A stretch of 64,000 bases of DNA from Candidatus Gastranaerophilales bacterium (GTDB taxonomy: Bacteria; Cyanobacteriota; Vampirovibrionia; Gastranaerophilales; Gastranaerophilaceae). Location: positions 62,001 to 126,000 of the forward strand of contig CALUUI010000003.1 in the NCBI GenBank assembly GCA_944323925.1. The letters are read 5' to 3'. The notes beneath the pieces are model-generated. The model was not told where the DNA came from and made no database searches. It saw only the letters and a list, made by a program, of their open reading frames with translations. The translations under genes were made by a program, and so were the position numbers. This document shows positions 11,482 to 58,043 of this stretch, in pieces. Within the stretch, counting starts at the first letter, position 1, and every line of letters begins with the position of its first letter.

Positions 11482-13728
11482 TTGAACATTAAAGCAATAA
11501 GTACATACGATTTAAAGAAGGGATATTCAAATTCAGAAACTAATAATAAGCCAATTAATACAGTAACAGTACCGACGCCTTCGGACGTTAGTGATGGTGT
11601 GGCATTTAGTGCGAATGGTAATCCAACAACGTTTGAAAAGCTAATGGAGGGGGTTAGAAGTTTTGATCCTCTTACAGCATTGGGAACATTAAAACAAAAA
11701 ATTGAAACAGCAGGGTTTGTTGCATTGTTTTTAATTCAAGATGGTTTAGGCATGACGCTTCCAAGGACTTGGACCGGTTTTAATCGAGATAGAGAGATAA
11801 CCGGCAAGTATCATATTCAAGAAGGTTTTGAAGTTCTTGGCAGAGAAGGTTTAACTGGTCCGATGATGATGGCAATTCCTGCAGGTGTTTTTGCATTAAC
11901 GAAAGCCTCGATGGGAAAATCTACATATATAAATACAAGGCTTATAAAATCATTTGGTAAGACTGTATCTAATTTAGTTAAAAATAATTCTTATAAAAGT
12001 GCAGAAGAATTAAAGTTTGCGGTCTTAGAAGATGGCTTCAGAAAAATGTATAAAGAAACGATAGGTACTGACGCTTCTAAGGATGTTATTTCCAAAGTTA
12101 TGTCAAAACTCGAAAAAGTTGCTCAAACAAAGAATTTCAATAGGCCAAGCAGTATGACTATTGATGAAATTAAGAGTACTTTTGGTGAGGAATATGGCTT
12201 AGATGCAATAAAAATATTTACGCAAAACGAGGCATTAAAAGCTGATGATGTTATTGAAGGTAAGGTTTTAAAGAAAGTTATAAAATCAATCAAGAACGAT
12301 TTAAGCAATCCAATGCAACCAGTCATTAATAATGCGCTATTAGAAACAAATGGAGCTGATTTATCAAGATTAAATAAAGTTATTCTGGATGGAAATAAAT
12401 TTGATGTGAAAGATGCAACCAACGGTTTATTAGCTTACGCACATGATTCGGCAACCAGAGTAAAAAATATTTCAGAATTTAACGCTGAAAAGGCGGAAGA
12501 TTTTATGAATTCAATGATAGGTAAGCGTTGGACTTCCAACATTGCGGCAGGTGCTACCGTTCTAGGTGTAATGAATTATTTACCTAAATTATATGCCTTT
12601 GGAGATAAGCCGCCCGGAGAAACTTCGAAATGTGAAGCAGAGCATAGACATCATCATGTTGAAGGTGAGCATCACAGGCATAATGATAAACTAATCCATC
12701 ATAGGCATGATAAAATTGGTGGTAACGAGCCGGATAAATCTAAAGATGTAAAGAAAGGCGATGTTGCTTTTACGGGTTTGTTCTCAGCAATGGGTAAGAA
12801 AATAGCAAATTGGAAAGATTTTGCGTTAGCAGAAGGTGAGTTTCACGGATTTAATTTCTCAAATACGTTAATGTCAGCAATTTCTATTGTTGGGCTAACT
12901 ATTCCTCGCGCCTCAAGAGCTTATGATCGTGCACCGGTTAAAGATCCTGAAACAAGGAAAAATGAAGGTTGGTTTGACAGGCTTTTCAAAAAAGATATTT
13001 CTGAAATAAAAGAAATAGCATTGAGAGATCCATTATCGGCCTTGTTTGTAGTCTTTGCTGTTCCACTGGCTACAAGAGGAATGATTAAATCTTATGAAAA
13101 AACTTCCGGATTTGTACTAATTAATCATGAACAGGATGAAGGTAAAGGATTTAAGAAATTTTTAAAATATTTAAATCCATACAACGGCATAAGTGTAATT
13201 AGTAATGCTGAACTAGATGCTTTATATGGTGGAATCGATTCTCATAACAAATTAGTTAATGTTTGTGAATATCTTGATAAAAAAGGTGGAGATTTAGAAA
13301 AGATATTCTCTAAGGCTGAATTAAAAGAAGAAGTATTTAATGAGAATAGTTTTACTTTAAAATCGCTTAGAAAATTAAAGGCCGCTGATAAAAATAAACA
13401 AATTATTGATTATATCAAAGGTGCGGATGCCGGACTTCAATCTAAAATGGTTGATTCATTGTTACCTGCGCTTAAGAAATTGAAAAATAATAAAGCATTA
13501 GGCATTGCAAAATCTTTAAGCTCATTGCCGTTCTTGTTAAACTTAATAGTTGTATCGCCATTCTTATTAGGTATAACAATTCCAAAATATACTTACAAAT
13601 TAACAAGAAAATCCGGAGATAAGGCAAAGGTTAATGCAGAGCAAAATAATAAGGCTCAAGAAATAGCAAAAGAAGATGCTATTAAAAAAATGGCAGACGA
13701 TAGTAAATTAGTGAAGCAAACAGCATAA
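11482..13728 (+). CDS. Unknown 748-aa protein with internal duplication and His-rich linker
   Basis: Not recognised. Start is TTG 11482, supported by GAAGGAAGGA just upstream and an N-terminus (MNIKAIS) like other tagged proteins here. Two halves share landmarks: VAF[ST] at 40-42 and 428-430, then G[ML]T[LI]PR at 90-95 and 471-476, then an RDPL or REGL helix entering a hydrophobic stretch ending in K. A third copy, GITIPK, is at 697-702 after a long hydrophobic segment. Between the halves, residues 384-411 hold a Cys and about ten His, a possible metal site. Several hydrophobic stretches of 15-25 residues suggest membrane association. The C-terminus is basic. It is monocistronic with its own terminator. 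Confidence 0.7.
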   Translation: MNIKAISTYDLKKGYSNSETNNKPINTVTVPTPSDVSDGVAFSANGNPTTFEKLMEGVRSFDPLTALGTLKQKIETAGFVALFLIQDGLGMTLPRTWTGFNRDREITGKYHIQEGFEVLGREGLTGPMMMAIPAGVFALTKASMGKSTYINTRLIKSFGKTVSNLVKNNSYKSAEELKFAVLEDGFRKMYKETIGTDASKDVISKVMSKLEKVAQTKNFNRPSSMTIDEIKSTFGEEYGLDAIKIFTQNEALKADDVIEGKVLKKVIKSIKNDLSNPMQPVINNALLETNGADLSRLNKVILDGNKFDVKDATNGLLAYAHDSATRVKNISEFNAEKAEDFMNSMIGKRWTSNIAAGATVLGVMNYLPKLYAFGDKPPGETSKCEAEHRHHHVEGEHHRHNDKLIHHRHDKIGGNEPDKSKDVKKGDVAFTGLFSAMGKKIANWKDFALAEGEFHGFNFSNTLMSAISIVGLTIPRASRAYDRAPVKDPETRKNEGWFDRLFKKDISEIKEIALRDPLSALFVVFAVPLATRGMIKSYEKTSGFVLINHEQDEGKGFKKFLKYLNPYNGISVISNAELDALYGGIDSHNKLVNVCEYLDKKGGDLEKIFSKAELKEEVFNENSFTLKSLRKLKAADKNKQIIDYIKGADAGLQSKMVDSLLPALKKLKNNKALGIAKSLSSLPFLLNLIVVSPFLLGITIPKYTYKLTRKSGDKAKVNAEQNNKAQEIAKEDAIKKMADDSKLVKQTA

Positions 13729-33076: not shown

Positions 33077-33991
33077 ATGCCAAATTTAAAAGATATAAAA
33101 AATAGAATACAAAGTGTAGAAAATACAAAAAAAATAACTAAAGCGATGAAAATGGTTGCAGCTGCGAAAGTAAAACGCGCAGAAAATACAGTTAAGGCTT
33201 CAAGACCATATTCAACCGAACTATTATCCTTATTTAAGACAATGCTGGAAAAAGTAAATTTGTCAATAGTAGGAGAAGTTCAAACCGATAGAGCTTTAGA
33301 TAATTATGTAGCATTAATGTCTCCAAGAGAAGTAAAATCAGTAGGTTTATTGGTAATAACTTCTAATAAAGGTTTAGCTGGAGCGTATAATGCAAACATA
33401 ATAAGAGCCGTAAATAAAGAAATTGAAGATAATAAATCTTCAGGAAAGAATACGGTATTGTATATTGCAGGGCTAAAAGGTGTTGCTGCATTTAAAAATT
33501 CTACATCAGGAGCAAAACTAGCAGGTACATATACTTCTGTAATAGATAATCCATCAATGGGTGCATCAGATATGATTGCTCAGGATTTAGCAGAAGCATA
33601 CGTGTCCGGAGAAATTGATGAGATAAAAATTATTACAACTCATTTTAATAATATGATGTCTTATTCTCTAACAGAACAAACATTGTTACCTGTTGATTTA
33701 TCGGAAGTAGAAGGAAAAGAATTAGATCCGATTATGGAGTTTGAGCCGTCTGCAGAAAAAGTATTACAAACACTGGTTCCAATGTACTTTTCTAATATAA
33801 TATATCAAGCGTTATTAGAGGCAAATGCAAGCGAATTAGCATCAAGAATGACGGCAATGTCAGCTGCTTCAAATAATGCAGAAGAAATGATAACAAATCT
33901 AACAATTAACTATAATAAAGCACGTCAAGGTGCAATAACGCAAGAACTTGTAGAAATTGTATCCGGCGCTAATGCGGCATCTAATAATTAG
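33077..33991 (+). CDS. atpG: ATP synthase subunit gamma
   Basis: 304 aa. N-terminal LKDIKNRIQSVENTKKITKAMKMVAAAK split by the usual pattern (rotor helix) and C-terminal ASRMTAMSAASNNAEEMI helix are diagnostic for the central rotating shaft. Last gene of the operon and followed by a terminator, so atpD (beta) and atpC (epsilon) must lie elsewhere, as in the cyanobacterial atp1/atp2 split. No chloroplast-type redox cysteine pair is present. The symbol atpG here means gamma in general bacterial usage. Confidence 0.95.
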   Translation: MPNLKDIKNRIQSVENTKKITKAMKMVAAAKVKRAENTVKASRPYSTELLSLFKTMLEKVNLSIVGEVQTDRALDNYVALMSPREVKSVGLLVITSNKGLAGAYNANIIRAVNKEIEDNKSSGKNTVLYIAGLKGVAAFKNSTSGAKLAGTYTSVIDNPSMGASDMIAQDLAEAYVSGEIDEIKIITTHFNNMMSYSLTEQTLLPVDLSEVEGKELDPIMEFEPSAEKVLQTLVPMYFSNIIYQALLEANASELASRMTAMSAASNNAEEMITNLTINYNKARQGAITQELVEIVSGANAASNN

Positions 33992-34052: not shown

Positions 34053-34406
34053 TTAGTTTTCGCTAAACTTCCTATAAAGAGCATAAGCAACGCCAGCACC
34101 AATAAATAGCAACCAAGTAGCCATATTCGAATCATCTTTTTGACCTATAGAACGGTTAACATAGGTTTTAAATTGTGAATTATTCCACGGAAGTTGAGCT
34201 TTTTGGGTTTGATCTTCAATAGGAATATATAGTTCAGTTGTTTGTTTTTGTTCATCATTAGCTTTGTTGTCAGATTTTGTAAAAACATCCATCCCTGTAG
34301 CTAACATAGAAGCAGATAAAGCTGCTGCATATAAGGTATTGGTCATGGTTTTATTAAATTTTAACCCTGAAAAATTTGTTTGATTACTAATAGCTTGTAC
34401 GTTCAT
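34053..34406 (-). CDS. Small tagged membrane protein, third of a tandem trio (117 aa)
   Basis: Not a known family. The N-terminus MNVQAISNQTNFSGLKF carries the tag motif; a hydrophobic stretch TLYAAALSASMLATG follows (about 23-37), then a polar linker of some 55 residues, then a C-terminal membrane helix MATWLLFIGAGVAYALY with a basic tail. Same plan as the two genes upstream: tag, hydrophobic segment starting with (L/F)-(Y/A), charged linker, C-terminal helix, basic end. Its ATG directly follows the TAA of the previous gene (TAAATG), with AAGGAG before it, so translation is coupled. Confidence 0.7.
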   Translation of the reverse strand: MNVQAISNQTNFSGLKFNKTMTNTLYAAALSASMLATGMDVFTKSDNKANDEQKQTTELYIPIEDQTQKAQLPWNNSQFKTYVNRSIGQKDDSNMATWLLFIGAGVAYALYRKFSEN

Positions 34407-34715
34407 TTATATCTCCTTGCTTTTTTTATTAACAGTCAAAAGAAATCCAACAGCCGCAGCAATTGCACCTAAAATAAGAGTAGATTTTGTTTTTTGTTCC
34501 CCTTCTATTTTATTTTTGAGCATATTGTCTTCAACCATTTCATTTTGTTGTCTAACGTCATAAGCAAACGAATCAAAATCTTGATATTGTGCTAGAGCCG
34601 GAGCTGTCATCATAATAGGGACAATTGCTGCATATAACTTATTTAAAGAACTTTTATTGGGGTTCTTAAGTATAGAACCTTGAAAATTTTGTTTAGATAT
34701 ATTTTGAATTTTCAT
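34407..34715 (-). CDS. Small tagged membrane protein, second of a tandem trio (102 aa)
   Basis: Begins MKIQNISKQNFQGSILK. Then LYAAIVPIMMTAPALAQ (about 27-43), which could be read as a late signal peptide with AQ|Y cleavage but sits unusually far from the N-terminus. A charged linker (QQNEMVEDNMLKNKIEGE) leads to the C-terminal helix TLILGAIAAAVGFLLTV with a KKSK tail. Architecture matches both neighbours although sequence identity outside the tag is low, suggesting old duplications. Function unknown. Confidence 0.7.
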   Translation of the reverse strand: MKIQNISKQNFQGSILKNPNKSSLNKLYAAIVPIMMTAPALAQYQDFDSFAYDVRQQNEMVEDNMLKNKIEGEQKTKSTLILGAIAAAVGFLLTVNKKSKEI

Positions 34716-34731
34716 ACTTCACAGAACCTTT

Positions 34732-35154
34732 CTAATTGTTTTTACGGACTTCGTTAACCGCGCTTCCTGCAATACCACCGATAATTAAGCCCCCGCCTAT
34801 GATTTTAAGGAAGTCCCATCCGTGTAACCCAGTACCTATGTCATCACGTAATTCTTCTTCACGTTTTTCCCGTCGATATTCCATATAAGCGTCAATTTTA
34901 GCCTGTTCTTCACTCTTTCGAATAAGTTGAGTTATCCTTTCGAGTTCTTCATCGTCCATAAAAGATTGAGCCTTGATTTCGGTCTTCATATCTGAGGCTT
35001 GTTCTTTTTGTGTACTAGGAACAAAGGTGTCAACTGCCGGAATTAAAGCGGCAGAAAAAAGTGCAGAATATGCAAATTTAGTTAACTTGCTTAACTTAGG
35101 TACATTACCTTTAGAACTAATGCTACCATTAGAATTAATTTTTTGTATTTTCAT
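34732..35154 (-). CDS. Small tagged membrane protein, first of a tandem trio (140 aa)
   Basis: Begins MKIQKINSNGSISSKGNVPK; the first four residues equal those of the next gene but the NFxG part has been lost. Hydrophobic FAYSALFSAALIPAVDTFV (about 28-46), then a long charged helix rich in E, R and K (DDEELERITQLIRKSEEQAK), probably coiled coil, then a Gly-rich membrane segment IIGGGLIIGGIAGSAV and a basic end. Has its own good promoter and a GGGGT binding site. Function unknown. Confidence 0.7.
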   Translation of the reverse strand: MKIQKINSNGSISSKGNVPKLSKLTKFAYSALFSAALIPAVDTFVPSTQKEQASDMKTEIKAQSFMDDEELERITQLIRKSEEQAKIDAYMEYRREKREEELRDDIGTGLHGWDFLKIIGGGLIIGGIAGSAVNEVRKNN

Positions 35155-56573: not shown

Positions 56574-58043
56574 TTAAGCGGATGCTGCTCCTGTAGAACT
56601 ATTGTTCGAACCTTTAAAGAGTTTTTGAAAAATTCTCTTTATAAAGTTGGTTTGTTCTGTGATTGTATCGTTTGCTACTGTTTGTTCAGGCTGAACCTCC
56701 GGAATTATTGAAGGTTGGGGTTCAGGGATTATTGGAGGCATTTCAGCTACTGCTTCTGCAATATCTTCTTTCATTTTAGGAGCACCAAACCTTCTGTTTG
56801 TTTTCTGGAAGTATTCTATTACATCTTCAAACATTTCTTGTGTAAGTTTTATTGCTTCAGGATCTTTGTTCGCATTTGCTGCTGCAAGTTTTTGCTGCAT
56901 CATTAATTCTACTGCATTATCAATAATATGTGTTACGTCTCTGAAGGATGCTCCGACAAGTTGTTGTGAAAGAGCTTCAATAGCTTCCTGATTTTCAAGT
57001 AGTTCTTTTGCACTTGGATATTTTTCCAGATACATTTTTACAGCGCTCTTTAATGCTTCTTTATCAGGATTGTCTACAAAGATTTTTGTGCCAAATCGGC
57101 TCATTGCAGCTTCATTCATATTTCCTATTTTACCTGTTGAAGTATTGAGAGTTAAGTTTGTTGTTGCAAAGACTTTGATGTTTTTATATTTTTTGAAACT
57201 ATCCATTACTTGTAAGTATGTTTTTATTACTTCTTGTCTTGATAAAGCAGTGTTGCTGTCAAGGTTTTTACTTTCTGCAAGTATTGATTCAATTTCATCA
57301 AATAACACAAAGAATTCTCGATTTGGTTCTTTTTTCGCACATTCTATTATTGCATCTGCTTTTTCTTTTAAGTTTACAGATGTTTGATACATATATGCAG
57401 AACCTTCTTGAGCCAGTGCAAATGTTGCAACATTTGCGTCAACTTCTTTTGCTGCTGATTTTACAAAGTTAGTTTTACCTGTTCCCGGAGGTCCGTGTAA
57501 GATACAAGCCATTCCCGGGTCAACGTTTTCTTTCATAAATAAATCTCTATGCTTTAGAGGATTAATTACTTTGGTTTGGAATTGCTGTTTTGCTTCTTCC
57601 ATTCCAGGTAATTTGCTTAATGTTATTATAGATTCATCATTTTTATAGTTTTCAAATAATGTTTTAGGTGTGTTCTTTTTACCTAATCCGCCAAGTAAAG
57701 GCTTTAAGCTAATTGCAATAAGAATAGTAAGAACTACAGATGTGACTAAACCTGCTACTTTATAAAAATTATCCCAATTAAATTTCTTTTTGGGTTGTTG
57801 CGTATATTGTAAAGAACGAGGATTATTAACAGGTAACATAATCACGTTTGGTCTTGGTGGAGTGTTTGTTGTACCTGCCTTAGAACCATTTGGTTGATTA
57901 TTAATAACCGGTTGACGCTTAAATGTATCTTGCTGTGGTTGTGCTATCATAACTACAGGCGTTCGTTTCGGTTGTGAATTGTTGGTATAATTCTCAGTTT
58001 GTGATTGAGATATTGGGCTTGCACCAAAATTGACTTTATACAT
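56574..58043 (-). CDS. Membrane-tethered AAA+ ATPase, no protease domain
   Basis: 489 aa from ATG 58041-58043, with AAGGAAGTG upstream. Order: tag MYKVNFGASPISQSQ; Q/P/N-rich disordered part to about 88; membrane helix 94-119 (FYKVAGLVTSVVLTILIAIS); AAA module with Walker A HGPPGTGKT (183-191), Walker B FFVLFDE (244-250), sensor ATTN (293-296) and arginine RFGTK (316); a helical lid; Pro-rich tail. Resembles the AAA core of FtsH or spastin-type proteins, but there is no HExxH peptidase or MIT domain. Probably remodels proteins at the membrane. It converges on tsaC and has a long AT-rich upstream region. Confidence 0.75.
   Translation of the reverse strand: MYKVNFGASPISQSQTENYTNNSQPKRTPVVMIAQPQQDTFKRQPVINNQPNGSKAGTTNTPPRPNVIMLPVNNPRSLQYTQQPKKKFNWDNFYKVAGLVTSVVLTILIAISLKPLLGGLGKKNTPKTLFENYKNDESIITLSKLPGMEEAKQQFQTKVINPLKHRDLFMKENVDPGMACILHGPPGTGKTNFVKSAAKEVDANVATFALAQEGSAYMYQTSVNLKEKADAIIECAKKEPNREFFVLFDEIESILAESKNLDSNTALSRQEVIKTYLQVMDSFKKYKNIKVFATTNLTLNTSTGKIGNMNEAAMSRFGTKIFVDNPDKEALKSAVKMYLEKYPSAKELLENQEAIEALSQQLVGASFRDVTHIIDNAVELMMQQKLAAANANKDPEAIKLTQEMFEDVIEYFQKTNRRFGAPKMKEDIAEAVAEMPPIIPEPQPSIIPEVQPEQTVANDTITEQTNFIKRIFQKLFKGSNNSSTGAASA

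What the first reader, a model, noticed from the sequence alone, without database searches (positions are those of the whole stretch)
34372..34406. Recurrent short N-terminal tag on otherwise unrelated proteins
Several unknown proteins in the window start alike: MNVQAISNQTNFSG (34406), MKIQNISKQNFQG (34715), MKIQKINS (35154), MYKVNFGASP (58043), MNIKAIS plus VAFSANG (11482) and MVSVQINSIN (7271). The bodies behind the tag differ: AAA ATPase, candidate peptidase, repeat protein, small membrane proteins. None has an ordinary signal peptide. A common short N-terminus ending in F-x-G or FGA before unrelated domains suggests a sorting, anchoring or processing signal. The last three matches are loose.
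Basis: partly seen in the sequence, partly recalled or inferred. Interest (0 to 1): 0.75.

Follow-up and report, generated by a model that had tools for sequence, protein, structure and literature searches.

The report
Class-wide N-terminal F-x-G targeting tag
Many unrelated proteins in a group of uncultured gut bacteria (Gastranaerophilales) start with the same short floppy tag ending in phenylalanine-(any)-glycine, kept by natural selection across whole orders; it looks like an address label of a kind not described before, but where it sends the proteins has not been shown.

Summary
The recurrent N-terminus is real and goes well beyond the window. Its form is M-[KRN]-[IV]-x-x-[IV], then a polar N/Q/S/T/K/P-rich spacer of about 3-60 residues, then [NPSVIT]-x-F-(x)-[G/A]. 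In 864 kb of the window's genome a fixed rule finds 27 tagged proteins, against 5.2 in shuffled N-termini and 4.9 at internal methionines. Across three genomes, 39 tagged proteins fall into 35 body families. Two unrelated families prove selection. One is a helical, probably membrane-embedded family (44/45 keep F, 43/45 keep G). The other is a group of AAA ATPases (F in 12/12). In both, spacers vary freely, codons vary synonymously and AlphaFold leaves the tag disordered. FtsH homologues lack it. In other orders the membrane protein is split into two genes, and usually both halves carry their own tag. So it is a portable signal needed per polypeptide. Two corrections apply: the three adjacent window genes are tandem paralogues (one lacks the F), and 7271 is not supported. 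Function is inferred. The leading candidate is export through a second, reduced flagellar-type type III system kept even by members that lost the flagellar FlhA. E. coli flagellar substrates lack the tag, so non-export docking remains almost as likely.

The parts
34365..34406 (-). Tag MNVQAISNQTNFSG of the 117-aa gene 34053-34406 (small protein with two weakly hydrophobic segments); covers the coordinates of the finding
   Evidence: orthologs MNVQAIKNTDQTNFSG, MEVNAINNVNQTNFKG, MKVNTINPAQQANFSG, MKIQAINNQNFSG
34677..34715 (-). Tag MKIQNISKQNFQG of the 102-aa gene 34407-34715
   Evidence: orthologs MKIQAISKQQFKG, MKVSAITNNNQSNFTG, MKISALSGCEQTNFKG
35107..35154 (-). Degenerate tag MKIQKINSNGSISSKG (F lost) of the 140-aa gene 34732-35154, third paralogue of the cassette
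   Evidence: ortholog in L008 reads MKIQAINTAHGFTGN
34053..35154 (-). Three-gene cassette of tagged paralogues between the ATP synthase genes (gamma-subunit-like gene ends at 33991) and a ribosomal-protein gene run (from 35477); conserved in the genus
58020..58043 (-). Tag MYKVNFGA of the AAA ATPase 56574-58043
11482..11613 (+). Tag MNIKAIS...SDGVAFSA (F at residue 42) of the 748-aa protein 11482-13728, a remote relative of the tagged membrane-protein family

Best explanation
The tag is a portable, intrinsically disordered N-terminal targeting peptide with two anchor points: a short start M-[KR]-[IV]-x-x-[IV], and, after a free polar spacer, F-(x)-G. A receptor reads it in trans. I put the existence of such a portable signal under selection at about 0.85. 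The most likely reader, at about 0.35, is the export gate of the second, reduced flagellar-type type III secretion system that this lineage keeps even where the flagellar FlhA is gone. The tag would then mark some 50-90 proteins per genome (extrapolated from the sample: lineage-specific proteins, AAA ATPases, pentapeptide-repeat proteins, weakly hydrophobic membrane proteins) for export to the cell surface or the surroundings. Shown here: the motif, its position, selection on F and G, disorder, portability, and co-distribution of the A2 family with the second FlhA. Inferred: recognition in trans, export, and the identity of the receptor.
For: Enrichment at N-termini only, in 35 body families among 39 tagged proteins. 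F15 and G17 are near-invariant in 45 A2-family proteins whose spacer varies (F at residue 12-35) and whose mean column identity is 32%. F is invariant in 12 AAA ATPases with F at residue 11-64. F codons are both TTT and TTC and G codons all four GGN, so selection acts on the protein. The tag is unmodelled (pLDDT below 50) in both AlphaFold models, although the A2 body is at pLDDT 87. FtsH homologues found by the same search have no polar tag. In families f9 and f15 the A2 protein is two adjacent genes and most of both halves start with their own F-(x)-G tag. For type III export: all 58 sampled genomes of the order have FHIPEP proteins, and about 14 family genomes that lack the flagellar-type FlhA keep the second one with FliE, FliF and FliH and, where searched, FlhB and FliI. 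The A2 family was found in f9, f15 and the order, which carry the second FlhA, and not in f8 or f13, which lack FHIPEP. The polar, acid-poor, hydrophobic-start composition and weak hydrophobic segments (median best peaks 1.89-1.17 vs 2.71-2.03 in polytopic controls) fit what PMC6110835 reports for membrane substrates of type III/IV systems. Gut Melainabacteria lack type I secretion (PMC3787301).
Against: The tag model does not recognise E. coli early flagellar substrates (FlgB-FlgG, FlgJ, FliE; no score beats its own shuffles). The known dual flagellar signal places the gate recognition motif at least about 27 residues from the N-terminal hydrophobic residues (PMC8983047), whereas F often lies at residue 6-20 here. 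G041 and f14 carry the second FlhA, but G041's sample shows little tag excess and f14 has no A2 family. PMC6110835 reports that type III substrates have few transmembrane segments, while A2 seems to have about five. Adjacency of tagged genes to type III genes is anecdotal. No receptor was identified, and all organisms are uncultured.
Confidence: 0.35

Rival explanations
1. The tag is a docking motif that holds proteins at an intracellular site (inner-membrane patch, pole, cytoskeleton or a scaffold) without export. A folded adaptor would bind F-(x)-G, and the spacer acts as a flexible leash.
For: Disorder, a free spacer and a two-residue core are typical of short linear motifs. Tagged A2 proteins look like multi-helix membrane proteins and AAA ATPases often act inside the cell. 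A conserved QF-x-G also persists inside fused A2 proteins (F in 45/45), which an export signal at the start would not need.
Against: No candidate scaffold was found. Docking motifs are often internal or C-terminal, whereas this one is enriched at the N-terminus only. The internal F may be purely structural.
Confidence: 0.33
2. The tag is a cleavable leader: a protease cuts after F-(x)-G/A, releasing a mature N-terminus.
For: The residue before the would-be cut is small (G or A, sometimes S) in nearly all cases, and the following residue is free.
Against: No maturation protease was identified. The alternation between F-G and F-x-G moves the site by one residue, unusual for a protease. The conserved start M-[KR]-[IV]-x-x-[IV] is not needed for a cut.
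Confidence: 0.1
3. The tag is an N-terminal degron read by a AAA+ protease such as ClpX (the lambda O degron, recalled from memory, also contains N-F-G).
For: Disordered N-terminal position and resemblance to a remembered degron; no computation supports it directly.
Against: It would put a large set of constitutive, partly membrane proteins under one degron; the ClpX motif does not have the conserved two-part layout with a long free spacer. Not tested here.
Confidence: 0.07
4. Artefact: compositional bias of AT-rich N-termini plus paralogy, with no function.
For: The three window genes that caught the eye are paralogues, and about 5 of 27 strict hits are expected by chance.
Against: Shuffles keep composition and are exceeded about five-fold. 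Body families are unrelated. F and G are conserved across orders, in genomes of different spacer composition, with synonymous change.
Confidence: 0.04

Closest known systems
Dual export signal of early flagellar (type III) substrates: N-terminal hydrophobic residues plus gate recognition motif (PMC8983047)
   Same: Unchaperoned N-terminal, two-part signal with hydrophobic residues at the start and a second motif behind a spacer; the lineage has two flagellar-type export systems.
   Different: Spacer often far shorter than the roughly 27 residues reported; the conserved element is F-(x)-G; E. coli substrates do not match the tag model.
Type III/IV-secreted membrane effectors with sub-threshold hydrophobicity (PMC6110835)
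   Same: Export-type N-terminus followed by weakly hydrophobic segments.
   Different: About five weak segments in the A2 family; no export shown; no host membrane known.
Sec signal peptides and lipoprotein signals
   Same: N-terminal, with a basic residue near the start.
   Different: No hydrophobic core inside the tag, no lipobox cysteine; in the cassette proteins a hydrophobic segment follows only after the tag.
Peroxisomal PTS2 signal (PMC12173945)
   Same: N-terminal address label on unrelated soluble proteins.
   Different: Eukaryotic and of different sequence; an analogy only.

Membership tests
Flagellar-type T3SS early-substrate signal | Small hydrophobic residues at the extreme N-terminus | tested here: met
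   I/V/L in alignment column 5, near the start, in 44 of 45 A2 proteins; M-R-I/M-K-I in nearly all tagged AAA proteins
Flagellar-type T3SS early-substrate signal | Second motif at least about 27 residues downstream (PMC8983047) | tested here: not met
   F at median residue 27 (12-35) in A2 and 14 (11-64) in AAA; residue 6 in the window AAA protein
Flagellar-type T3SS early-substrate signal | Sequence resemblance to proven flagellar substrates | tested here: not met
   PSSM scores of E. coli FlgB-G, FlgJ-M and FliE do not exceed their own shuffles
Flagellar-type T3SS early-substrate signal | Export through the type III gate | not testable with these tools
   An export gate is present in all sampled genomes of the order, but transport needs an experiment
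Sec signal peptide (SPase I) | Hydrophobic core of 7-15 residues within the N-terminal peptide | tested here: not met
   The strict rule requires a polar prefix (at least 75% of NQSTKYHPIVDRE) and most tagged proteins have no predicted segment there
Lipoprotein signal (SPase II) | Lipobox with Cys after a hydrophobic core | tested here: not met
   No hydrophobic core followed by cysteine at F-(x)-G in the listed tags
ClpX N-degron | Degradation dependent on the N-terminal motif | not tested
   Resemblance to the lambda O N-terminus is from memory only

The most novel reading that the evidence does not exclude
A previously undescribed protein-targeting code, shared by orders of the class that contains Gastranaerophilales, in which a disordered N-terminal F-(x)-G peptide sends a large set of unrelated proteins, including membrane proteins, to a dedicated export machine derived from a flagellum that no longer makes a filament.
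Probability: 0.28. Interest if true: 0.92.

Novelty: new variant of a known kind. Interest (0 to 1): 0.72.

Why it matters
N-terminal address labels are few, and each defines a transport route. A conserved one in abundant but uncultured gut bacteria would give a list of probable exported or specially localised proteins that standard signal-peptide predictors are not built to find. If the route is the second flagellar-type system, it would explain why non-motile members keep a partial flagellar gene set (a puzzle noted in PMC5877343), and each step can be tested with a two-residue change.

Tried and rejected
A bare F-x-G scan without prefix rules is only weakly enriched (34 proteins vs 19.9) because many housekeeping proteins contain it. 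FliI and FliD hits were rejected as false positives: conserved-domain sequence such as LYQFKGSVSKLLGL and MTISFSGLASGLD. A second motif D-[ST]-F-x-[KRP] seen in the cassette and the AAA protein is not clearly enriched genome-wide. The idea that FliE of E. coli (MSAIQGI...TISFAGQL) is a tag relative failed scoring. The A2 fold found no PDB match: Foldseek nothing at E<=0.001, VIA best Z 6.7 over 140 residues to a membrane pyrophosphatase, not above the noise for helical models. The A2 halves align over only 30 columns (probability 38-44%), so internal duplication is unproven. The scan with the AAA protein gave one named relative, a Candidatus Gastranaerophilales MAG.

Full report
Source. The window is G000:C3:62001-126000 of a 1.94-Mb, 42-contig genome with about 33% GC. 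The nearest named relative is a Candidatus Gastranaerophilales MAG, 87% identical over the AAA protein. Below, 'family' f1 and 'order' refer to the handles of the genome search; the order is presumably Gastranaerophilales.

Observation. The gene starts at 34406, 34715, 35154, 58043 and 11482 read as reported. The first three are tandem paralogues with one layout: tag, basic linker, a weakly hydrophobic segment, D-x-F-x-K or similar, and a second weakly hydrophobic segment near the C-terminus. They are conserved side by side in other genomes of the genus. The third has lost the F (SSKGN), and one ortholog still has GFTGN. The 7271 protein is not supported.

Chance. I called genes with a codon-usage script on 864 kb of this genome (782 genes) and on about 240 kb each of G013 and G016 (same family, other genera), G041 (same order, other family) and G058 (same class). 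With a fixed rule (polar, acid-poor prefix then F-[KTSGQNR]-[GA] within 60 residues) G000 has 27 proteins vs 5.2 in composition-preserving shuffles (maximum 12 of 100), G013 6 vs 1.6, G016 6 vs 1.6, G041 3 vs 1.6 and G058 0 vs 0.5. Starting at internal methionines instead predicts 4.9 for G000, and replacing F by Y, L, I, V, M or W gives 11, 16, 16, 14, 4 and 1. A PSSM trained only on G000 is enriched in the held-out genera: at threshold 9, 8 vs 1.6 and 5 vs 2.05 in shuffles. The 39 strict hits of three genomes form 35 families by body similarity.

Selection, family 1 (called A2 here). L026, L042 and L084 hold 511-568-aa proteins, mostly in tandem pairs, without a Pfam match, present in 54 of 60 genomes of the family and in nearly all other sampled genomes of the order. 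In 45 members from many genera, mean column identity is 32% and the spacer is unalignable, yet F is kept in 44/45 and G in 43/45. F codons are TTT or TTC and G codons all four. AlphaFold models the body well (pLDDT 86.6, pTM 0.84) but residues 1-18, tag included, at pLDDT below 50. The tag is therefore conserved although the model gives it no place in the fold.

Selection, family 2. Relatives of the window's AAA ATPase start MRIQSINNTVNFGYNK, MRISRVTPYGTAFGYNK, MNVNGISRISFGYNK, MQISKISFPRSLTTFGHS, MKILPVQNY...NVCFTGN and so on. F is invariant in 12 aligned proteins while its position runs from 11 to 64. FtsH homologues caught by the same search (L254, L257, L258, L260) have no polar tag, a built-in control. 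Residues 1-12 are again disordered in the model. This family shows that F-G and F-x-G are alternatives.

Portability. In two other families of the class (f9, f15) the A2 protein is split into two adjacent genes. Most N-half and C-half genes carry their own polar N-terminal extension ending in F-(x)-G, e.g. L212 MKVAPLPISSYYPVTQPKPAPPTPRFQG and L227 MINASPLDAMKPHW...PPVKFSG; L225 MNIGNTRPVMTKMLPKQTQFSGG; L224 MVNMNNLTLPVRFRGA; L216 MKLMAPHFPPANQPRFGY. One C-half (L217) reads RLGG instead. The spacers there are P/S/Q-rich rather than N/K-rich, so the composition changed while F-(x)-G stayed. In the fused proteins of the order a QF-x-G or similar remains at the junction (F in 45/45). It may be the remnant of the second tag or simply structural.

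Candidate route. All 58 sampled genomes of the order contain FHIPEP proteins. G000 has a flagellar set (FlhA, with genes that look like FlhB, FliR and FliQ beside it, L111), a second set with FliE, FliF, FliH and FlhA (L112, L079), a second FlhB, two FliI, and a soluble FlhA-C-like protein (L013). About 14 genomes of the family lack the flagellar FlhA and keep the second one; those also searched for FlhB and FliI have FlhB and a single FliI. The A2 family was found in the order, f9 and f15, where the second FlhA occurs, and not in f8 and f13, which lack FHIPEP; f14 has a second FlhA but no A2. These lineages are related, so this is weak evidence. Tagged genes sit beside type III genes in several places: L079 beside FlhA2; L112 beside FliE, with MADVSSNNYNNIAFGGG; L062 beside FliI; and L035, where two pentapeptide-repeat proteins and a kinase-like protein lie next to FliK-like and FlgE/F/G-type genes. 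No count against background was made. The hydrophobic segments of A2 are weaker than in polytopic controls, as PMC6110835 found for membrane substrates of type III and IV systems.

Evidence against the route. The tag model gives no signal on E. coli rod, hook and FliE proteins. The spacing rule of PMC8983047 is not met. G041 has both FlhAs but little tag excess in its sample. I therefore hold export through the second system at about 0.35 and non-export docking at about 0.33.

Known or new. Searches of the open literature for Gastranaerophilales with signal peptide or type III secretion, and for Vampirovibrionia with secretion system, found no description of such a tag. PMC3787301 reports that gut Melainabacteria lack a type I system, and PMC5877343 reports partial flagellar gene sets; neither mentions a tag in the passages read. 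N-terminal targeting peptides are a known kind of thing, and this one fits none of those tested.

Limits. The gene starts come from my own caller, the genomes are MAGs, only samples of genomes could be read, and recognition, localisation and processing are all inferred.

Noticed in passing
L112, L079, L113, L115, L117 (G000, G013, G016, G007, G008); FlhB2 in L036, L164, L168: A second flagellar-type type III system (FliE, FliF, FliH, FlhA, FlhB, FliI) is conserved across the order, and genomes lacking the flagellar FlhA still keep it; in G041 (L114) it sits with rod-type genes.
   Followed up: partly
L013:7955-9421: A 488-aa protein holding only the cytosolic FlhA domain, present in nearly all sampled genomes of the order; could be a spare substrate-docking platform.
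   Followed up: no
L026, L042, L084 and relatives; window 11482-13728: A new helical, probably membrane-embedded family without Pfam or PDB match, fused in the order and split into two genes in f9/f15. The 748-aa window protein is a remote relative whose family also appears split in many genera.
   Followed up: partly
L237-L246 and other tagged AAA proteins: Tagged AAA ATPases end in a conserved C-terminal G-F (mostly [IV]-G-F); two long ones (L239, L252) hold two or three AAA domains.
   Followed up: no
L035:896-5775: Two tandem tagged pentapeptide-repeat proteins and a kinase-like protein (APH E 8e-5) next to FliK-like and hook/rod genes.
   Followed up: partly
L016:9399-16613: A 2404-aa protein with a FliD-like N-terminus.
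   Followed up: no
L079, L090, L113 and others: Many short pilin-like proteins with FTLAEVLITLGIIGIVAA-type N-termini in these genomes.
   Followed up: no
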